Source of the DNA: Hyphomicrobiales bacterium
Lineage (GTDB): Bacteria > Pseudomonadota > Alphaproteobacteria > Rhizobiales > Xanthobacteraceae
Direction: 5' to 3'
DNA length: 64,000 nt
NCBI GenBank assembly: GCA_017305715.1
Contig: JAFKKG010000009.1
Location: forward strand, 62,001-126,000
In this document: positions 20,658-32,293 of the stretch, in pieces
Numbering within the stretch: the first letter of the stretch is position 1
How the letters are laid out: every line of letters starts with the position of its first letter
Notes under the pieces: model-generated
Databases searched by the model: none
Seen by the model: only the letters and a program-made list of their open reading frames with translations
What the model was told of the DNA's origin: nothing
Translations under genes and position numbers: made by a program

Positions 20658-21179
20658 CGAATTTCTCCCTCGAGGGTTATTGTTCTTGAGATGCAATCCT
20701 ATACGGACCTGATGCCGTGCGGTCATCAGCGATCTCATTCAGGGCGGGCTTATTGCAGCGTCTGGAAGCGGCGGCAATATCGGCGTCAGGATCGCGCGAC
20801 GAGCCAGCCATCGCGGGCTTCCGAACGGCGTTCGGGACGCGCCTCAGAGCCGCAGGCGACAGCCAAACTGATTTGCCGTGGTAGGAATTTCGCCTAAACA
20901 TCTGATTCAATTGTAGATATAAATATTCCATAATATACCTTATGCGAATTACGGTCATAAGGGTGAGCAATGCCAAATCATGGCCGTGCAAGCCGAAGTT
21001 TCTATTGGCGCTTGTTCTCCCTCTCGTTGTGCCCTTAAAGTGAGGATGGGACCCGCAGGATATTGGCGGCGCCGAAGCAACCTCGGCAGGATCCCGGATT
21101 TTGATACGGCCAAGATATTTCCCGAGGAGCTGATGATCACTCCTGTGCGTGCCGGTTTGTTCGTGGACGTTTTGCAAAG
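20658..21179. other. divergent intergenic region, likely promoters
   Basis: About 520 bases between the divergent TRAP operon and the cyclase operon. Positions 20901-20940 are strikingly AT-rich for this genome and probably hold the cyclase-operon promoter or a regulator site. A 71-codon plus-strand frame at 20980-21195 overlaps the cyclase start and does not look like a protein. Confidence 0.4.
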
Positions 21180-24100
21180 GTGGGCCCTGCCGTGAGCACA
21201 TGCCCGGTTTGCTCGGCCCCAGTCGCTCGCAAGCACCGGTACTGCCCGCAATGCGGAAGCAGGCTTGAAGGTGGCGCCGACAATTCTGCCGGCCTTCCGG
21301 CCACCGGCGCGGCGGCGCGCGATCCGCATCCCAACCAGCGCGAACATCGTCCGAAGTTGCGGGCGATGCGAATGTCGACGGAGAATAAGCAGGCCAGCGT
21401 GCTGTTCGTCGACGTCTGCAATTCGACCATGCTGTTGCAGCATGCCGATCCGGAAGCATCGCGGGAATATCTCGGCAAGACGCTCGACCTCCTGGTCGAT
21501 GCGATCGAAACCTTTGGCGGCACCATTAGCCAATTGCTGGGCGACGGTCTCGTTGCCCTGTTCGGCGCGCCGATTGCGCAGGAAGATCACGCCTTGCGGG
21601 CTTGCATGGCCGCCCTCAAGATCCAGCGCGCAACCATCCCCGCCTACGAAGCCCACGGCCTTGTCAGCCCCACCTTTCGCATCGGCATCAATTCCGGTGA
21701 GGTGCTGGTGGGCATCGTCGGCCAGTACCAATGGTCGCATTACGGCGCGGACGGCCAGACCATCCACATCGCATCGCGGCTCGAGCAGATGGCGCCGCCC
21801 GGCGGCATATTGCTCAGCGCGTCGACGCAGCGGCTGGTTGCGCAGCAGATCGATACGCGGCCGGTCGGGGTGCGACCGGTACGCGGACTGAACGCCCCGA
21901 TCGAGCTTCACGAAGTCCTGGTCGGCACGGAAAGCTCGGCGGCCGCGCCGCTGACGCGAAAACAGCAATGGGCGCCCCTCGTCGGACGCACCGATTCGTT
22001 GCAGGTGCTCGGCCGGGCCTTCGAAACCGTTCAAACTGGCACGATGCGGACCATCGGGCTGCGAGGCGATGCCGGGATCGGGAAAACCCGCCTGATCGCG
22101 GATTGGACGGGCGCGCTCACCAGTCAGGGCGTGGACGTTTGCATCACCCAGGCCAGGGGATATGCGAGCACGCGGGCCTACAGCACGGCCGCCGACCTGA
22201 TCGCGAACATGGTGGGCGTGCCTCGCAGCACCGTGACCGAAGCCAAGCAAATTGCAATGCAGGCGCTGGTCGCCAAATGGCCGGCAGATGGCGCCGACCA
22301 TCTGGCGGCCGTGAGCGACCTGCTCGGCCTGGGAGCGCCGAGCGAACTGTGGCTGGGATTGAATCCGGGCCAGAGGCGACGCCGGATCGGCGAGGCCATG
22401 TTGTGGCTGGTGCGCCGGCGTCTCCAGACAGGCCCGCTCGTGCTGGTGATCGAGGATGTCTTTCTGGCCGATCGCGACAGCCTGCGGCTGTTCGAGGCTT
22501 TGCTTCCCCGGCTCCAGGCGCTGCCGGTGCTGGTTTGTGTCAGCTATCGGCCGGATTTCGAACACCAATGGGCGCAGGCTGCGTGGTTCGCGGAGCACCT
22601 GGTGTCGTCCCTGCCCGACGGCGAGATGCTCGCCCTCGCCCGCGCCCTGCTCGGCGATGATCCTTCCGTGAACGGACTTATGGTCGAACTGGTGCGCCGC
22701 GCCGACGGCAATCCGTTCTTCATGGAGCAGATTGTCATCACGTTGATCGATGACGGATCGCTCGAAGGAACGCCGGGTGCGTACCGGTTGCAGAAACGTC
22801 TCGGAGAATTGCGGGTCCCGGGTTCGGTTGCCGCCGTCATCGGGGCGCGCGTTGACCGCCTGCCCGATGCCGCGAAGTCGGCGCTGGAGGCCGCCAGCGT
22901 TCTCGGCGATCCGATCACCCGGGAACTGATCGCCGCCATGCAGGAGGTCGATCTTGCGCGTGCGGAAGACCTCTTGGGTCTTTGCCTCTCGTCCGGCTTG
23001 CTGACCTCCCCCGCCAAGGTGCGCGGTTCGCTCGAGTCGCCCGCATTCCTGTTCCGTCATGCGCTGGTGCGGGATGTCGTGCTCGGAACCCTCACCCGCG
23101 CCCGCCTCAGGGCGCTGCATCGGCTCGCCTTCCTCGCCTTGCATGCGCAGCCCGGTGCCGACGATGCTGACGCCGCGCCGGCGCTCGCGCATCACGCCTT
23201 CAGGGGCGGAGAATGGGAGCAGGCGGCGCGGTACGCGGTGAAGTCGATGGCAAGCGCGATCTCGCGCTCGGCCAATCAGGACGCCCTGCAATTGTTCGAA
23301 ATGGGCATCGAAGCGTCCAGCCGCGTCGACGGCGAGTCCGCGGCACGCGCCCTTGAGCTGGCGCTTCGACTGGAAGCCATCGGCGCCATGATGGCGCTCG
23401 GGCAGATCGACGAAATCTTCAACAACATGGCACGCGCCGAAACCATCGCTGCGCAACTGAACGACCAGCGTGCACGCGCCTCGGTTTTGACCCAGACCGC
23501 GGTGTTCCTGTGGATGCGCGGGGATTTCGGGCAGGGTCTGCGGCACGCGACGCAGGGCCTGGAAGCGGCCCGCCTCGCGCAACGACGACATATGACGATG
23601 GCTGCGCATCAAACGCGCCTGCTGCACTTTCATGCGCTCGGACGATATTCGGAGGCTGCCGCGGAAGGTCGGGCCGTGCTCGCCGAGTTTGGTCCCGAGT
23701 TGGCGCAGCACTCCGTCCAGACCGGATGGGCTGCCATCCCGATCATCAACCTGTACGCATTCCATGCCAGCACGTTGTGGCGGCTTGGCGACTACCAGGG
23801 CGGGCAAAGCGTATGCGCCCTCGCCTACGACATCCTGTCGAAGGTCGACCATCCCTACTCGCGTTTGTTGATCGATACCGTCCAGGGGCAGATCTGGATC
23901 GAGCAACAGGAACTCGACAAGGCGGAAGCCTTGCTGCGCACGGCCGTTCAGCAATGCATGACACACAGCGTGCTGACCATGCTGGCCGTTGCACCGGGGT
24001 TCTCGGCAGTGCCCTGGCGCGCAACGGCAGGGCGTCCGAGGCCGTACCGCTGCTCGAAAAGGGGTTTGACGACCGCATCTATAGTGCAGCCGGTCCTTAT

Positions 24101-24388
24101 GGCAGGACCTTCATGCGTGTCGGCCTGGGCGTCGCCTATCGCAATCTTGGAAGGCTGGACGATGCGATCCGCGCCGGACGCAGGGCCGTCGAACAAAGCG
24201 GCGAAGAGTACGGGCACCGGACCGAAGCCCTTTACGAACTGGCCGAGACGTTGCGGCGGGCCGGCAATGATGCAGAGGCAGAGGATTGCTTCAGGCAGAC
24301 CCACGAGGCGGCGCGCCGCTTGGGAATGCCGTTTTTCGAAAGGCGGGCCGCAGCAGCCCTTGCAAAACCTGAGTGGCACCCGGCATGA
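21180..24388 (+). CDS. zinc-ribbon class III nucleotide cyclase with ATPase and TPR regions (frameshifted near 23996)
   Basis: A large signalling protein, about 1069 aa when the frame is restored. Order: N-terminal zinc ribbon (Cys8, Cys11, Cys22, Cys25); class III cyclase domain (about 70-235) with metal-binding Asp78 in LFVDVCNST and Asp122 in QLLGDGLVALFG, and RIGINSGEVLVG; an AAA/STAND-like ATPase with Walker A GDAGIGKT near 300; then a long TPR-like helical region. At about 23996, within CCGGGG, the frame shifts: the original frame runs to 24689 with arginine-rich nonsense, while the -1 frame continues as a good TPR (LGSALARNGRASEAVPLLEK, GVAYRNLGRLDDAI) and ends at 24388, overlapping the next ATG by 4 bases. 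This is either a real mutation, a sequencing error in the G-run, or frameshifting. GTG starts are possible at 21180 or 21192. First gene of a four-gene operon. Confidence 0.83.
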
Positions 24389-25668
24389 AAATCTCAACCT
24401 CCGCTCCCGATGCCATGCCGCCGGGCGTTCGCGCCCTGCTCTATGGCGCCTTTTGCTGGCTCAACCGCCACATCATCGTTTTGCGCGGGGTGGGCGCGCT
24501 ACTGCGGTTGTGGCCCTCCCTCGCCGGCCGGTTTGGCCTCGCTGCCCGCGCCAGCGCCGTCAAAGGCGTCCTGACGCGACCGCAGAGTTTTTCAAATCGT
24601 ACGCACGCGCCCGATCTGGTGGCTGGCGACTACCTGATCGCGATGGATCCCGGCCCGGTTTATGCTGCCGACAGGAAGTTGCTCGATAGCCGGTTGGCCA
24701 TTCTACGGGTTCAGGCCGACGCCGATCGTGAGGCGCAGAGGCTTGTCGCCAAACTCGGGAATCCCCCAGGGCAATCGTTCGATCTCATCGACGACTATCT
24801 GATGTGGATCGCGTTTCACGCGATCCAACCCGTGTTCGGCACCGCCGCCAGCGAGGTGGCCGCCGGCGCGGGAGGCGATGTCAATGATCCCGGTCTCCAG
24901 CGGCAGTACCTTCTGGAGATCAGATATGTGGCGGGCCAGCTTCTGGCCGGCAACTCGTCGACGCTACGCGTACAGCGGAGAGCGGAAGTCCACGCGGCTT
25001 CGCTGATTGCGCGCATCCAGGGGGTTTGTAGCAACGTTGAAAAGGCCTGGGGAGAGCCAAGCCCATCGGAGGGCACCGAACGCAACGCGGTCGGCCTCGC
25101 CTGGATTTCGCATCCGGTGACGGTGCAGTCCGGTGCCCTTGTCGTGCAGGAGCTTTTGAGCCGCCGAAAGGTCTATGAAGATCTTCGATCGGCAGCGAAC
25201 GAATTGGGAGAACGCGTCTGGACGGACCAGAGTTTTCGCAAATCCGTCTATGATCACGTGCTCGAGTTGATGCGATTCAGACCGATCTTTCCGCTGATGG
25301 CACGCGATGTCCCGCGCGACACCGAGTTTGCTACCGGCGGGCGTCGCAATGCCGTGTGCCCCGCCGGCGGCAAGGTCGCTCTGTTTTCGATCGGGGCGTT
25401 GTTCGATCGCCGTGCAGTCCGTCGTCCCGGCCGATTTTGTCCGCAGCGCGATTGGGGCGACCAGGAGGGCTTGCGCTGGCTGATGTTCGGATACGGCACG
25501 CGCCAGTGCCCTGCCAAGGACCATGCGGTGGATATCCTGACGAGTGCCCTGATCGGCTTGCTGACGATGCCGGAGCTGCGGCTGTCGAGCGATGACGGCA
25601 AGGCAATCGCCTACGATGGCCCGCTGATGTCACGCATGCGCGTGCGCTGCGCTGCGCAGGAGAAATAG
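24385..25668 (+). CDS. divergent cytochrome P450
   Basis: A 427-aa protein. The heme-binding loop MFGYGTRQCPAKDHAV is clear, with thiolate ligand Cys375. The ExxR pair is Glu294-Arg297 in LELMRFRPIFP. The PERF-like region before the heme loop is also present (RRPGRFCPQRDW). The usual I-helix AGxxT motif is not visible (the matching stretch is about 234-258), so oxygen activation may differ from typical monooxygenases, perhaps peroxide-driven. It overlaps the cyclase frame by 4 bases and is followed 5 bases later by a membrane-protein gene. Substrate unknown; the operon also carries a DyP peroxidase. Confidence 0.83.
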   Translation: MKISTSAPDAMPPGVRALLYGAFCWLNRHIIVLRGVGALLRLWPSLAGRFGLAARASAVKGVLTRPQSFSNRTHAPDLVAGDYLIAMDPGPVYAADRKLLDSRLAILRVQADADREAQRLVAKLGNPPGQSFDLIDDYLMWIAFHAIQPVFGTAASEVAAGAGGDVNDPGLQRQYLLEIRYVAGQLLAGNSSTLRVQRRAEVHAASLIARIQGVCSNVEKAWGEPSPSEGTERNAVGLAWISHPVTVQSGALVVQELLSRRKVYEDLRSAANELGERVWTDQSFRKSVYDHVLELMRFRPIFPLMARDVPRDTEFATGGRRNAVCPAGGKVALFSIGALFDRRAVRRPGRFCPQRDWGDQEGLRWLMFGYGTRQCPAKDHAVDILTSALIGLLTMPELRLSSDDGKAIAYDGPLMSRMRVRCAAQEK

Positions 25669-25673
25669 CAGCC

Positions 25674-27461
25674 ATGCTCACCACCGTCCGGCAGCAGATG
25701 ATTTGTGTGATTGCCCCGGACTGGTCCAGCGGGGCCGTTCTGCCGGATTCCAGATTGCTGGAGAAGTTTTTCGGTGACGTCGGGATCGTGCACTTCGCCT
25801 CGATTGCCTTGTTGCCGGCACTTGACGATGCGCCCGGCAAGAAATTGCCGTCGCTGATGCTCGAACTAGCCGTCGAAGAGGGGCTGCGGCCCTACGACGT
25901 GTTCTATCGTCTCGTGAACGATCCCAGCGGAACGATGTGGTCGCTCTACAGCGCGTACTGGTCCAATCCGTCCTCCCTGGTCAGCGAGCGCAACCAGGCC
26001 TTGGTCGATCGGTTGATGGAATGGCACTCTATCGCCGATGGCGGCTTCGTCGGGGCGCGGGACCGGTCGGTCGGGCAGATCAAAATGGAGCGCGATCTGC
26101 TTCAGCAAACGCGGGCCGAGGCGCGCCGGCTGAAGCCGCAATACGGCAGTGACCGCGCATCCTTTGCGCTGGCGCTCAGCCGATGGGCCCGTGGAAATCC
26201 AGCGCTGGAGTGGGCAGCCAAGCCCGCGCCCCGATCCTGGTATTGCAAAAGCGGCGCCGCGAAGGCGCTCTACGGATTGGCGATCGCCGGCGTGGTGCCG
26301 GCCGTCCTTTGGCTGGCGGGTGCGTTATCGCGGTTATTGATGCGCGCCGATGCATGGTTCTTCGGCATGCCGCATCCCGGGGTGCAGGCCGTGCTGGACG
26401 CGGTGAGCCAGGCAAGTCGGTCGCTGCTTTGGACTTGTGGACGCGGCGTCCTCGCGTTGTTGGCGCTTGTCGTTCTGGCGTGGCTGTTCTTTGTCGTGCT
26501 GCCGGCGATTTTCAAGGCCTGGCGGACCTGGCTGGCAAGCCTGCATCGCGAACTCGATCGGCCGACCGAGACGTGGTCGTCATTGGCGACTTACGTCGTC
26601 GGTTGGCTCGTCGGCGTGCCGCTCGTTATCGCGGTCCTCGCGTGTGCCGCAGCCTATACTTTCGCACCAGAATGGCTCGCAAGCCAGATCAAGCCGTTGA
26701 TCCCGCACGCTCCCGGATGGAAATTGCTCGGCATCGGTGCCGTCGTGTTCATTCTGGGTCTCGGCATTGTCCAACTGGCTAACCGGTTCAACCGTCTGCT
26801 TTCGAAGCTGAGCGCCCGGTTCTATCATCCACGCGAAGACGACGTGTACCGCGCGCAGCAGGTTCATCCATCGATCGATCAGTGCGAGGCGGACCTCGTC
26901 GGAAAAACCGCGCACATGATAAGTCTCACGGATATGCGCGATCCGAATGGATGGAGCGTCTGGTGGACCCGTGCCGCGCTGCGTATCGTGACATTCGCCG
27001 GACGGGTATTTTTCACGGAAGGACGCCTGGGCGATGCGCCCGGCATTCACTTCGGTCACTGGCATATTATCGACAACGGCCGCCGTTATCTGTTCTGCTC
27101 CAATTATGACGGCAATTTTGGCGGCTACCTCGACGATTTCATCAATGGCGCGACGGTCGGAACCACGCTGGCATGGCGGTGGACGAAGCTCAAGCGCCGT
27201 GCGTCCGCGGTCGCCGGTCAGCCTGATGTCGCCGAACCGCGCAGCTTTCCCCCGACACGGTTCGCTGTTTTCCGAGGTGTGAAGTGCGAGCTGAAGTTCA
27301 AATCCTATGCGCGCGACAGCATGCTTCCGCATTTGTATCGCTTCGAAGCCTGCAACACGACGGTCGACGAAATCGACCTTGCCACCGCGCTGCGCGACGC
27401 CCTGTTCGGCGAACGGAATGACAAGAACGACGACCTGATCATGAGGGCCATCGAATGTTGA
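25674..27461 (+). CDS. membrane protein of the cyclase-P450-DyP operon, unknown function
   Basis: A 595-aa protein with a soluble N-terminal region (about 1-185), four hydrophobic segments (about 195-215, 255-280, 308-330 and 348-368) and a soluble C-terminal region (about 375-595). The C-terminal part contains IHFGHWHIIDNGRRYLFCSN followed by YDGNFGGYLDDFI. A weaker echo of this pattern occurs near residue 38 (VHFASIALLPAL, then LMLELAVEEG), so the two soluble parts may be related domains flanking the membrane segments. I know no function. It overlaps the DyP gene by 7 bases, which argues that the two products act together, possibly placing the peroxidase at the membrane. Confidence 0.8.
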   Translation: MLTTVRQQMICVIAPDWSSGAVLPDSRLLEKFFGDVGIVHFASIALLPALDDAPGKKLPSLMLELAVEEGLRPYDVFYRLVNDPSGTMWSLYSAYWSNPSSLVSERNQALVDRLMEWHSIADGGFVGARDRSVGQIKMERDLLQQTRAEARRLKPQYGSDRASFALALSRWARGNPALEWAAKPAPRSWYCKSGAAKALYGLAIAGVVPAVLWLAGALSRLLMRADAWFFGMPHPGVQAVLDAVSQASRSLLWTCGRGVLALLALVVLAWLFFVVLPAIFKAWRTWLASLHRELDRPTETWSSLATYVVGWLVGVPLVIAVLACAAAYTFAPEWLASQIKPLIPHAPGWKLLGIGAVVFILGLGIVQLANRFNRLLSKLSARFYHPREDDVYRAQQVHPSIDQCEADLVGKTAHMISLTDMRDPNGWSVWWTRAALRIVTFAGRVFFTEGRLGDAPGIHFGHWHIIDNGRRYLFCSNYDGNFGGYLDDFINGATVGTTLAWRWTKLKRRASAVAGQPDVAEPRSFPPTRFAVFRGVKCELKFKSYARDSMLPHLYRFEACNTTVDEIDLATALRDALFGERNDKNDDLIMRAIEC

Positions 27462-28927
27462 AGAGCGCACCGGTTCTCTCGGAGCAACTCGGCGACATAC
27501 AGGGCATGCTGAAGAGCGGCTATGGTTGGCTCAAAACCAGCCGCTTCTGGCTGCTGACGGTTCGCGATGGCCGCGAGGATCAGGCAAGGGCCTGGCTCAA
27601 AGAACTGCTCAAGCCCGAGTTGGATTTGATCGTCAGTGCCGAACGCGTCGGCGAAGCGAAGACCAAGCGCATCGATGAAGCCCTGGCGATCGCGTTCAGC
27701 CATGCAGGACTCGTGAAACTTGGCTGCGAGGACACTGGCGCGCATCCATTCCCGACCCCGTTTTGCAGCGGTATGGGCAGTCGATTGCGCGAATCGCTGT
27801 TGAACGACAGCCCGCGGCAATGGCGCTGGTCGGACGTCGAAGGGTGCCTCGATCGACAGGCCGTCCATATTCTCGTGGCGCAATGGTCGCTGCGGGACGC
27901 AACGACCAGGATGCCCGATCCTGATCCGGAAGTGTTCCAGATCAACAAGGTCGAGAACAACCCCTACTCTTTCGCAAAGCGCAACGACGACCCGGAGGAG
28001 CGGTTGCGCGAGCCGTTCGGGTTTCGCGATGGCATCGCACAACCGGTGATCCTCGGCCTCAGGGACGTGGATGGTGAGAGCGACAAGGCAGCCAGGCTGC
28101 ATGCCGGTCCGTTGTATGAAGACCGTGTCGTCTCTCCCGGGGAATTCATTCTCGGCTATCGCAACGAGTACGACGAACTCACCTACTGTCCCGACGTTGA
28201 ACGATGGGCGCAGTTGCATCCGGGCAGCCGCTTCACGCTGAACGGAAGCTACCTGGCGGTGCGGCAGATCGAGCAGTACGTCAACGCGTTCAAGGAACTC
28301 GAAGACGCAAATGACGTGTCGGTCTGTGAGAAGATGATAGGGCGCAGGAAAAACGGCCTGCCGCTGTCGTGGAAGGGCAATCCGGACGATCAAATCCCGG
28401 ATTCGACAGCCGACGCCTTTCGTTACCAGGTAGACGACGCGAACGGCTTCATGTGCCCCAAAGGGTCGCACATCCGCCGGATGAACCCCCGCGACTCGCT
28501 GGGGAGCGATGTGCCATCGGGAGTCAAGGCATCCAAGCTGCACAGACTGTTGCGCCGTGGACGCCCCTATCTCGAGGAGACCGCGGACAAGGACGAGCCC
28601 AGGCAAGGCATATTCTTTATCGCCTGCAACGCCGATTTCGAGCGACAATTCGAATTCATTCACCAGCGCTGGATGCGCAACTTCCGCTTCGGCGCGCTTC
28701 ACCACGAGGATGATCCGATCGTGGGGGTGCCGCAGCAGCCCAGCAAGACCTTCACCATCCCGGCGCTGCCGAGCGGCCGTGAGGTGTCGTTGAAGGATCT
28801 GACCGGCACACTCGGAGGCGGCTACTTCTTCCTGCCGGGGATCAAGGCGCTCAACTTCATCGCGGAAAGCATGCGCCCTGCCCCGCGGGTGGCCGGCTCA
28901 TCTGCTGAAACTGCGACCGTTCGATAA
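27455..28927 (+). CDS. DyP-type heme peroxidase
   Basis: A 490-aa dye-decolourising peroxidase. The GxxDG motif is in PFGFRDGIAQP with catalytic Asp192. The probable proximal heme ligand is His339 in CPKGSHIRRMNPR. The Arg-rich LHRLLRRGRPY follows, and the C-terminal family block FIACNADFERQFEFIHQRWM is present. Length is in the range of the longer (C/D) DyP classes. I see no N-terminal Tat signal, so it is probably cytoplasmic, and no encapsulin-targeting tail. It is the last gene of the operon and overlaps the membrane-protein gene by 7 bases. Substrates are unknown. Confidence 0.92.
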   Translation: MLKSAPVLSEQLGDIQGMLKSGYGWLKTSRFWLLTVRDGREDQARAWLKELLKPELDLIVSAERVGEAKTKRIDEALAIAFSHAGLVKLGCEDTGAHPFPTPFCSGMGSRLRESLLNDSPRQWRWSDVEGCLDRQAVHILVAQWSLRDATTRMPDPDPEVFQINKVENNPYSFAKRNDDPEERLREPFGFRDGIAQPVILGLRDVDGESDKAARLHAGPLYEDRVVSPGEFILGYRNEYDELTYCPDVERWAQLHPGSRFTLNGSYLAVRQIEQYVNAFKELEDANDVSVCEKMIGRRKNGLPLSWKGNPDDQIPDSTADAFRYQVDDANGFMCPKGSHIRRMNPRDSLGSDVPSGVKASKLHRLLRRGRPYLEETADKDEPRQGIFFIACNADFERQFEFIHQRWMRNFRFGALHHEDDPIVGVPQQPSKTFTIPALPSGREVSLKDLTGTLGGGYFFLPGIKALNFIAESMRPAPRVAGSSAETATVR

Positions 28928-28931
28928 CGAG

Positions 28932-30630: not shown

Positions 30631-31263
30631 ATGAGCGACCATGATCACGACCACCATCACGATCACGACCATTCCGAACTGTCGGAGACCGAGTTGCGCG
30701 TCCGCGCGCTCGAGACGATCCTGACAGAGAAGGGCTATGTCGAGCCTGCCGCGCTCGATGCCATTATCCAGGCGTACGAGACCAAGATCGGCCCGCATAA
30801 TGGCGCGCAGGTTGTCGCCAAGGCCTGGACCGATCCCGCGTTCAAACGGGCCCTGCTGGAGGATGCGACCAAGGCCGTGAGCACGCTCGGACATGTCAGC
30901 CGGGTCGGCGACCACCTCGTCGCCGTCGAAAACACGCCGCAGCGCCACAACGTGATCGTGTGCACCCTGTGCTCCTGTTATCCCTGGGAAATGCTGGGAC
31001 TTCCGCCGGTCTGGTACAAGGCCGCACCGTATCGCTCCCGCGCCGTGAAGGACCCGCGCGGTGTGCTCGCCGACTTCGGCGTCAGCCTGCCCAAGGAAAC
31101 CGAGGTCCGCGTTTGGGATTCGACCGCCGAGACCCGCTTTCTGGTGCTGCCGATGCGCCCCGAAGGCACCGAGGGATGGAGTGAGCAGCAGCTCGCCGAA
31201 CTGGTGACGCGCGACTCGATGATCGGCACCGGTTTCCCGAAAACGCCGGGCGCGCCATCGTGA
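30631..31263 (+). CDS. nthA: nitrile hydratase subunit alpha (cobalt type)
   Basis: A 210-aa catalytic subunit that hydrates nitriles to amides. The metal site [17 protein letters not shown] gives ligands Cys111, Cys114 and Cys116 with Ser115. The Thr in CTLCSC marks the cobalt class, whereas iron enzymes usually have CSLCSC. Two of the cysteines are expected to be oxidised after translation. The N-terminus is unusual: residues 3-14 are nearly all alternating Asp and His, a possible metal-binding tail. It overlaps nthB by 4 bases. Confidence 0.97.
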
Positions 31264-31919
31264 ACGGCGTCCACGACATGGGCGGCATGGACGGTTTCGG
31301 CAAGGTCGAGCCCGAGCCCAACGAGCCGATGTTCCATACCGAATGGGAAGCGCGCGTGCTGGCGATGGTACGCGCGATGGGCGCCGCCGGTGCCTTCAAC
31401 ATCGACACGTCGCGCTTCTATCGGGAGGCGCTGCCGCCGCACGTCTATCTCAGCAGTTCCTATTACAAGAAATGGTTTCTCGGGCTCGAGGACCTCCTGG
31501 TCGACAAGGGCTTCATCGCCCCCGAGGACGTTGCGGCCGGGCATGCGGTGCAGCCGCCGAAGCCGCTCAAGCGCGGCAAGTTCACGGTCAATGACGTCGA
31601 ACGCATCATGGTGCGCGGCAAATTCGGCCGCACGGCGCCGGCGCCCGCGAAATTCAAGCCAGGCGAACTTGTGCGCGCCAGGAACATTCACCCGGCGACG
31701 CATACGAGGCTGCCGCGCTACGTGCGCGGCCATGTCGGCGTGGTCGAGCGCGACCACGGCTGTCATGTGTTCCCCGACTCGGCGGCGATGGAAGCCGGCG
31801 AAAACCCGCAATGGCTCTACACCGTCGTGTTCGACGGCACCGAGCTATGGGGCCCGGATGCCGACCCGACCGTAAGAGTATCGATCGATGCGTTCGAGCC
31901 CTATCTGGAGGCGGTATGA
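31260..31919 (+). CDS. nthB: nitrile hydratase subunit beta
   Basis: A 219-aa partner of the alpha subunit. Family landmarks are [19 protein letters not shown] at the start, the helical [20 protein letters not shown] region, and the C-terminal SH3-like domain with [19 protein letters not shown] and [10 protein letters not shown]. Start is GTG at 31260, overlapping the nthA stop. It overlaps the accessory gene by 4 bases. Confidence 0.97.
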
Positions 31920-32293
31920 TGGACGCTGCGGCGGCCCGCGCGACCGTGGCCGTGCCGGGCATTCCCCGCGATGATGAGGGGCCGGTGTTTCGCGAGCCGT
32001 GGGAGGCGCACGCCTTCGCGATGGCGCTCGCACTGCACGAGCGTGGATTGTTTACCTGGAGCGAATGGGCCGCCGCCCTCGCCGACGAAATCAAGCGCGC
32101 CCAGGCCGCCGGCGACCCCGACACCGGCGAGACCTATTACCGGCACTGGCTGGCGACGCTGGAGCATCTGGTCGCGCAGAAAGGCGTCGCGACATCCGAC
32201 ACGCTGCATCGCTATCGCGACGCCTGGGATCACGCGGCCGACCGCACCCCGCATGGCGCCCCGATCGAACTGACGCCGGGTGATTTCAGGTAG
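31916..32293 (+). CDS. nitrile hydratase accessory protein
   Basis: A 125-aa protein related to the N-terminal half of the beta subunit. It shows the family pattern PVFREPWEAHAFAMALALHE, then FTWSEWAAALADEI and YYRHWLATLEHLVAQKGV. Such proteins help insert cobalt and oxidise cysteines by subunit exchange in Co-type enzymes. Start is ATG at 31916, or the adjacent ATG at 31919; the first overlaps nthB by 4 bases. The three genes form one operon. Confidence 0.93.
   Translation: MMDAAAARATVAVPGIPRDDEGPVFREPWEAHAFAMALALHERGLFTWSEWAAALADEIKRAQAAGDPDTGETYYRHWLATLEHLVAQKGVATSDTLHRYRDAWDHAADRTPHGAPIELTPGDFR

What the first reader, a model, noticed from the sequence alone, without database searches (positions are those of the whole stretch)
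21180..28927. Four-gene operon: nucleotide cyclase/ATPase/TPR, P450, four-helix membrane protein and DyP peroxidase
Seen: four plus-strand genes joined by overlaps or tiny gaps (ATGA, 5 bases, 7-base overlap), each with clear family motifs except the membrane protein. Known: class III cyclases make cyclic nucleotides; P450s and DyP enzymes are separate heme oxidants. Inference: a membrane-linked oxidative module with two heme enzymes, sensed or controlled by its own large signalling protein. The P450 lacks the usual I-helix oxygen-activation motif, so both enzymes could use peroxide. I know no described system of this composition. It lies behind an AT-rich promoter region between core-type genes, as an acquired unit would.
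Basis: partly seen in the sequence, partly recalled or inferred. Interest (0 to 1): 0.72.

Follow-up and report, generated by a model that had tools for sequence, protein, structure and literature searches.

The report
Bacterial peroxidase–P450 lipid-oxidation cassette
A small gene cassette found in scattered bacteria joins two heme enzymes, a peroxidase and a cytochrome P450, through a previously unnamed linker domain, and it may be a bacterial counterpart of the pathways that make fatty-acid signal molecules in animals, plants and fungi.

Summary
The four genes are real: class III cyclase–ATPase–TPR, P450, membrane protein and DyP peroxidase, tightly packed. In the window the cyclase carries a one-base frameshift near 23,987. 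The unit recurs. Of 54 DyP loci tabulated outside the window, 50 have within 6 kb a companion domain, without Pfam match where scanned, which forms both ends of the "membrane protein". Of these 50, 31 have a P450. Nine have P450, companion and DyP in one polypeptide. Seven have, instead of P450, a catalase-related protein whose best solved relative is coral allene oxide synthase; none has both; twelve have neither. Phospholipase-type genes lie beside a few clusters. The window P450 lacks the oxygen-activating acid–alcohol pair, and 30 of 32 P450s lack the acid, but two keep the pair. In the window the operon is a cassette of about 8 kb between two genes that are 0.3 and 0.8 kb apart in two relatives. 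Best reading (about 50%): a peroxide-driven lipid (hydro)peroxide pathway that works like fungal dioxygenase–P450 fusions but is built from unrelated parts. Substrate, products and the cyclase's role are inferred, not shown.

The parts
20955..28930 (.). Inserted cassette: sequence absent from the empty sites in two relatives (operon plus 225 bp upstream of it)
   Evidence: Homology to L135 and L136 stops at 20954 and resumes at 28931; the flanking DctP and enoyl-CoA hydratase genes are 322 and 777 bp apart there
20882..20941 (.). AT-rich stretch (26.7% GC), on the flank side of the insertion boundary
   Evidence: no promoter-like site above chance
21180..24388 (+). Zinc-ribbon-like / class III nucleotide cyclase / AAA_16 ATPase / TPR protein; frameshifted near 23,987 in this genome (zinc-ribbon models below their cut-offs)
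21381..21887 (+). Class III cyclase domain, both metal-binding Asp motifs present (role recalled)
21975..22535 (+). AAA_16 ATPase domain
24002..24316 (+). TPR repeats, in the shifted frame
   Evidence: ORF 23510-24388
24385..25668 (+). Cytochrome P450; ExxR and heme Cys present; I helix reads ISHPVT, no acid-alcohol pair in either possible register
25674..27461 (+). Membrane protein made of two companion domains with membrane helices between
25674..26213 (+). Companion domain copy 1 (MEMn)
   Evidence: hhalign of its family to that of copy 2: probability 97.8, E 1.1e-12
26253..26789 (+). Four strong hydrophobic segments
26820..27458 (+). Companion domain copy 2 (MEMc), found within 6 kb of DyP in 50 of 54 loci
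27455..28927 (+). DyP-type peroxidase, catalytic Asp192 and proximal His339 conserved (roles recalled)

Best explanation
The operon encodes a membrane-anchored, peroxide-driven lipid-oxidation module. Steps with sequence evidence: a DyP peroxidase works as one unit with a companion domain (here duplicated and tied to the membrane) and, in most loci, with a second heme enzyme, either a P450 that has mostly lost its oxygen-activation acid or a catalase-related protein of the allene-oxide-synthase type. Inferred steps: unsaturated acyl chains, in some loci released by a neighbouring phospholipase, are peroxidised or their hydroperoxides handled by DyP; the second heme enzyme rearranges the hydroperoxide (or uses it as oxidant) into an oxygenated fatty-acid product without a redox partner; in some lineages a class III cyclase protein gates or reports the reaction.
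For: Same order in six full-length Bradyrhizobium loci, and P450, MEM and DYP with other layouts in distant ones. P450+companion+DyP in one polypeptide in 9 of 54 loci, companion+DyP in six more, P450+DyP in one. P450 in 31, catalase-related protein in 7, both in 0 of 50 companion-DyP loci. The A4 profile's best PDB matches are coral allene oxide synthase 1u5u (1.3e-6), 3dy5 and 3e4w; RxxxY kept in 7 of 7 (by eye). In 31 of the 42 genomes with such loci it has 9 matches, 7 beside DyP; 3 of these 7 built the profile. Lipases: patatin in L100/L102, L131, L134; FadL in L100; LCAT-like in L128; Tle1-like in L129; a GDSL-like stretch, below Pfam's cut-off, fused in L105. 4 of 151 patatin matches in the 31 genomes lie at the cluster, 0.35-0.46 expected. 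No acid in the I-helix pair in 30 of 32 P450s, the window's included. DyP catalytic Asp and proximal His kept in 55 of 55 (46, 9 more).
Against: No substrate or product is known. No lipase was found in the window's own operon, nor in most loci as far as scanned. Twelve of 50 companion-DyP loci have neither heme partner by these profiles. Two P450s (L126, L128) keep an Asp-Thr pair, and in 16 of 25 a Thr follows the Pro that marks the family; if that Thr is the usual alcohol, only the acid is lost there. P450-like domains of L105 and L132 lack ExxR. No lipoxygenase or COX was met in the proteins scanned, so DyP itself would have to make the hydroperoxide or receive it. The patatin excess rests on three independent loci (P 0.005-0.012). 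The P450s are not CYP152 by model (none of 150 genomes matched NF053744 at E 1e-60), and their best PDB matches are ordinary bacterial P450s. No systematic scan for redox partners was made. The window's cyclase is frameshifted.
Confidence: 0.5

Rival explanations
1. Catabolism or detoxification: DyP and the P450 act on aromatic or xenobiotic compounds, with peroxide or ordinary O2 chemistry; lipid genes are incidental neighbours.
For: DyPs oxidise dyes and lignin models (recalled); two Skermanella plasmid hosts come from oil- or hydrocarbon-contaminated sites; P450 and DyP of the window have no hydrophobic segment by hydropathy; two related P450s keep Asp-Thr.
Against: Replacement of the P450 by an allene-oxide-synthase-like catalase relative and phospholipases in the same gene runs are not expected.
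Confidence: 0.23
2. Conflict or abortive-infection system: the cyclase-ATPase senses an invader and the heme enzymes poison the membrane by lipid peroxidation.
For: Patchy cassette (7 of 36 genomes of the genus, own included) in a variable site; patatin of L100 resembles CBASS phospholipases (NF041079 159 bits, below its cut-off of 200; PADLOC effector 200 bits); some plasmid copies near CHAT, nuclease, toxin or restriction genes.
Against: PADLOC has no match for the window's P450, membrane protein or DyP, and the PycC match covers only the cyclase domain; a cyclase was found in only 17 of 50 companion-DyP loci (L060 left out as TPR only).
Confidence: 0.15
3. Lipid-peroxide defence: DyP and P450 or catalase relative remove fatty-acid hydroperoxides made by oxidative stress, with no signal product.
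For: Same gene content; 3e4w in the PDB list is, as recalled, a mycobacterial catalase-related peroxidase.
Against: A lipase in the run and a regulatory ATPase-cyclase fit regulated synthesis better than scavenging (inference).
Confidence: 0.12

Closest known systems
Fungal linoleate dioxygenase-P450 fusions (Ppo / DOX-CYP)
   Same: A heme peroxidase-type enzyme and a self-sufficient P450 on one chain, acting in series on fatty acids (PMC13049297, passages)
   Different: Here the first enzyme is a DyP, not a COX-type peroxidase; a companion domain and membrane helices are added; P450 is N-terminal in eight fusions, C-terminal in L131, L105 and probably L132; substrate untested
Coral allene oxide synthase-lipoxygenase and plant CYP74
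   Same: Either a catalase-related protein or a P450 can handle fatty-acid hydroperoxides (recalled); the same alternation is seen here
   Different: No lipoxygenase met in the scanned neighbours; relation of the P450s to CYP74 was not tested
CYP152 peroxygenases
   Same: The I-helix acid is lost and a Pro stands in the pair (Arg-Pro in CYP152, PMC5377825 passage; Pro in 27 of 32 here)
   Different: No Arg before the Pro; whether the Pro sits at the alcohol or at the acid position depends on the register; no match to the CYP152 model at the cut-offs used
Pseudomonas aeruginosa oleate-diol synthase (PA2077/PA2078)
   Same: Bacterial oxylipin pathway; a RoxA-like di-heme protein follows companion-DyP in L022, and in L055 by NF040606 match
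   Different: Only RoxA-like resemblance; PA2077/PA2078 themselves were not compared; the paper was seen as passages (PMC4496055)
Class C/V DyPs such as Alr1585 (AnaPX; class recalled)
   Same: Best solved relatives are 8re3, 8re2 and 5c2i/Alr1585
   Different: Usual descriptions treat DyP alone (recalled); here a companion domain accompanies it, also in one Nostoc and one Streptomyces plasmid (profile made without them)

Membership tests
DyP-type peroxidase | GxxD-type motif with catalytic Asp, proximal His, conserved Arg, Dyp_perox_C domain | tested here: met
   Pfam 1.8e-8; Asp, His and Arg in 55 of 55; TIGR01413 93.4 bits, just under its 100.5 cut-off
Cytochrome P450 | ExxR and heme Cys | tested here: met
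   Window: both. ExxR in 31 of 32 (not L105), Cys in 32 of 32; the P450-like tail of L132, counted apart, has Cys but no ExxR
O2/reductase-dependent P450 monooxygenase | I-helix acid-alcohol pair | tested here: not met
   Window: no pair in either register. Acid absent in 30 of 32; L126 and L128 keep Asp-Thr. Ungapped match to MycG puts Pro at the alcohol position; the Asp-Thr of L126/L128 puts it at the acid position
CYP152 peroxygenase | Arg-Pro in the I helix; CYP152 model | tested here: not met
   No Arg; best NF053744 match seen E 0.036 for L100; no genome of 150 at E 1e-60
Oxylipin synthase pathway | Conversion of fatty acid to hydroperoxide and rearranged product | not testable with these tools
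   Only gene content and alternation
Allene-oxide-synthase-type catalase relative (partner in 7 loci) | Sequence similarity to catalase-related AOS and RxxxY heme-ligand motif (motif recalled) | tested here: met
   1u5u E 1.3e-6; RxxxY 7 of 7 by eye; Pfam Catalase only sub-threshold in L134, no Pfam match in L050, L053, L103
Pycsar / CBASS defence | Defence cyclase with cyclic-nucleotide-activated effector | tested here: inconclusive
   PycC matches in the cyclase domain only; no PADLOC match for the other three window proteins
TOMM kinase/cyclase fusion | NCBIfam TIGR03903 cut-off 705.75 bits | tested here: not met
   218.8 bits

The most novel reading that the evidence does not exclude
A widespread, undescribed bacterial eicosanoid-like pathway: phospholipase, DyP with a new companion domain, and an interchangeable P450 or allene-oxide-synthase-like catalase make lipid mediators, gated in some lineages by a cyclic-nucleotide ATPase protein. 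It would give class C DyPs a physiological role and show that the peroxidase-P450 tandem arose independently in bacteria.
Probability: 0.32. Interest if true: 0.9.

Novelty: categorically new. Interest (0 to 1): 0.74.

Why it matters
The natural role of DyP peroxidases is largely unsettled (recalled), and the roles of oxylipins in prokaryotes are described as largely unidentified (start of the abstract of PMC5155153, listing). A conserved unit that ties DyP to a new domain, to a P450 or an allene-oxide-synthase-like partner, and at times to phospholipases makes that role directly testable, and the single-chain versions (1.4-1.6 thousand residues) are candidate biocatalysts.

Tried and rejected
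AlphaFold of the whole membrane protein from 8 sequences was useless (pLDDT 41); the companion domain from 32 sequences gave pLDDT 73.5 and only weak Foldseek matches (best E 0.028, target TM about 0.5) to dimeric ferredoxin-like/ABM proteins, so the fold is a lead. The genome-contig scan with DyP found only three close relatives. Pycsar/CBASS membership left inconclusive. CYP152 membership rejected. That the L022/L055 di-heme protein equals P. aeruginosa 10S-DOX was not established: NF040606 rang in 1 of 14 control genomes, Thermus, below cut-off. Pfam alone did not name the catalase-related proteins; the profile search of solved structures did. Promoter and terminator scans gave nothing above chance. 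A search on the physiological role of DyP listed 37 papers, none on this by the ten titles shown.

The 54-locus table holds loci from the MEM, DyP and companion searches plus ten plasmid regions chosen by hand from 18 and 81 records. The profiles behind it were partly built from the same loci. L132's C-terminus reads by eye as a divergent P450 but did not reach the threshold and is counted as 'neither'. The loci are not independent: several are close relatives. L060's cyclase label is a TPR match only. For some searches I gave 31 of the 42 genomes with such loci, leaving out mainly close relatives; the patatin place list was cut by the tool, so the 151 is the sum of the per-genome column and some matches are pieces of one gene.
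Full report
Observation. The window is from a Bradyrhizobium-type genome: its three DyP relatives in the named collection are Bradyrhizobium records. The cyclase gene is frameshifted near 23,987: six full-length relatives keep one frame of 1064-1073 aa, and the window lacks one base against the three relatives aligned. Whether this is a mutation or an assembly error cannot be told here.

Acquisition. Seven of 36 sampled genomes of the genus, the own genome included, carry the membrane protein at high similarity (E 1e-150 or better). In the window the operon separates a DctP gene from an enoyl-CoA hydratase gene. In two relatives these two genes are 322 bp (G012) and 777 bp (G001) apart, and G001 has the operon on another contig. 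Homology to both empty sites stops at 20,954 and resumes at 28,931, so a cassette of about 8 kb was gained as a unit. In G004, G015, G019, G023, G028, G033 and G035 the two genes are about 3-5 kb apart, so the site is variable. GC is ordinary (63.5% against 63.0%), but GC3 of the four genes (0.74-0.79) is below that of three flanking genes (0.83-0.89).

Recurrence. CYC-P450-MEM-DYP in this order is found in six full-length loci (L012-L017). More distant genomes keep parts but not the layout. In L020 and L045 the cyclase is convergent with P450-MEM-DYP. In L021 membrane protein and DyP are one chain. In L040, L041, L046, L047, L051, L052, L054 and L058 P450, companion domain and DyP are one chain of 1408-1633 aa (longest start), behind a cyclase gene in five (TPRs scanned only in L040) and behind a TPR protein without cyclase match in L041, L054 and L058. 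L105 runs companion, DyP, a P450-like domain and a GDSL-lipase-like stretch (27.0 bits, under Pfam's 32.9) in one chain of 1587 aa. In a phylum sample all 14 of 299 genomes with a membrane-protein match (E 1e-3) are among the 24 of 299 with a DyP match (E 1e-10). In a class sample 12 of 385 genomes have the companion domain.

The membrane protein. Its C-terminal domain (about 150 aa) reaches no Pfam cut-off in 7 of 7 stand-alone copies scanned. It lies within 6 kb of DyP in 50 of 54 loci tabulated; the four without it are L094, L096, L101 and L104. It is also present in one Streptomyces and one Nostoc plasmid, by a profile made without them. Its N-terminal part is a second copy (hhalign probability 97.8, E 1.1e-12), and in L056, L099, L100 and L102 a second companion gene, in L056 with its own hydrophobic helices, aligns with it. 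The model of the domain (pLDDT 73.5) resembles dimeric ferredoxin-like proteins only weakly. That DyP belongs to the same fold class is recalled, not tested.

The second heme enzyme. Among the 50 loci with companion and DyP, 31 have a P450 within 6 kb, seven a catalase-related protein, none both, and twelve neither. The catalase-related profile matches coral allene oxide synthase best among solved structures (1u5u, E 1.3e-6). In 31 of the 42 genomes with such loci it has nine matches, seven of them beside DyP; three of these seven built the profile, so four are independent. L093 keeps a large cyclase-ATPase together with the catalase-related protein on one strand. Alternation between a P450 and a catalase relative is what eukaryotic hydroperoxide-metabolising pathways also show: plant CYP74 and coral AOS (recalled; the P450 side also in passages of PMC13049297).

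P450 chemistry. Over 32 P450s (25, seven more; the P450-like tail of L132 counted apart) the heme Cys is present in 32 and ExxR in 31. At the I-helix pair 27 read x-Pro, two Ala (L020, L045), one Gly (L131), and two keep Asp-Thr (L126, L128). So the acid is absent in 30 of 32. Where the Pro sits is open: an ungapped pairwise match to MycG (3zsn) sets AGYES against AGFVP and puts Pro at the alcohol position, as in CYP152, where Arg-Pro replaces the pair (PMC5377825, passage); the Asp-Thr of L126 and L128 stands at Pro-Thr and would put Pro at the acid position, with the Thr kept in 16 of the first 25. In the window (ISHPVT) neither register gives an acid-alcohol pair. The operon P450s are not CYP152. 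Peroxide use is therefore an inference, and the Asp-Thr members speak against it for their loci.

Lipid neighbours. L100 has patatin and FadL in the run with companion, second companion, DyP and P450; L102 of the same genus has a patatin at the same place. L131 (divergent) and L134 have patatin, L128 an LCAT-like hydrolase, L129 (divergent) a Tle1-like phospholipase. Of 151 patatin matches in 31 genomes four lie at the cluster among those listed; 0.35-0.46 are expected (P about 0.0005-0.0013; 0.005-0.012 if the two loci of one genus count once). The estimate assumes even gene placement. Neighbours were scanned in part only; the window's operon has no lipase.

Co-inheritance. In 18 non-redundant loci, distances of DyP and companion correlate (Spearman 0.65, Mantel P 0.001), P450 and DyP less (0.39, P 0.001), P450 and companion least (0.24, P 0.046). 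Shared descent of hosts is not removed by this test.

Regulation. A cyclase was found in 17 of 50 companion-DyP loci (two of them in L134 are of another make). All 17 rows aligned keep both metal-binding Asp motifs; the usual transition-state Asn is His in the large forms except L132, and Asn in the shorter ones; the Arg is kept in 16 of 17 (not L132) (residue roles recalled). So control by cyclic nucleotide is optional at best.

Literature. Searches for DyP with P450 plus cyclase and operon, gene neighbourhood and fusion, Bradyrhizobium and cyclase, or patatin found no paper; DyP with oxylipin found one fungal transcriptome paper (listing only). The library is open-access PMC, so absence there is not absence in print. 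PMC13049297, PMC5377825, PMC4496055 and PMC9112060 were seen as passages only.

Verdict. That this is one functional module is very likely (my estimate 0.95). That it works on lipid hydroperoxides, like peroxidase-P450 oxylipin synthases, is the best-supported mechanism (0.50, lowered from 0.55). It is not a member of those families by descent as far as tested: the parts are DyP, a new domain and P450s outside CYP152; CYP74 was not tested. I rate the system categorically new in composition, with the mechanism to be shown.

Noticed in passing
window 30631-32293: Three consecutive plus-strand ORFs look like nitrile hydratase alpha (CTLCSC motif), beta and activator; recognised by eye, not scanned.
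   Followed up: no
L059 4350-7314 and L060 5433-8396: One Streptomyces and one Nostoc plasmid share companion domain, DyP and a 337-342 aa protein (62% identical between the two, no Pfam match): another partner of companion-DyP.
   Followed up: partly
L022 6517-10255, L055: Companion-DyP followed by a RoxA-like di-heme cytochrome c (NF040606, about 494 bits) in two genomes of the genus.
   Followed up: partly
L043, L044, L062: Rhizobium and Sinorhizobium plasmids carry a companion-DyP fusion followed by an endonuclease/exonuclease/phosphatase-type protein, near nucleases, a CHAT protein or restriction genes.
   Followed up: partly
L061 2902-9823: Sinorhizobium plasmid: companion, DyP, NIPSNAP, second companion, DUF4331, with a gene annotated hemA upstream.
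   Followed up: no
L130 5239-10477: Three companion domains in tandem before DyP, followed by an MFS-like protein (just under Pfam's cut-off).
   Followed up: no
L051 2356-6033, L052 16816-18375: A subtilase (L051) and a metallo-beta-lactamase-fold protein (L052) lie on the 3' side of the fused P450-DyP gene; the two loci look alike by eye.
   Followed up: no
L126 and L128: P450s beside companion-DyP that keep an Asp-Thr pair where their relatives have Pro: natural comparison for oxygen versus peroxide chemistry.
   Followed up: partly
G012, G001, G019, G023, G028, G033, G035 between DctP and enoyl-CoA hydratase: The insertion site varies across the genus (about 0.3 to 5 kb between the two genes in these), possibly an integration hot spot.
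   Followed up: partly
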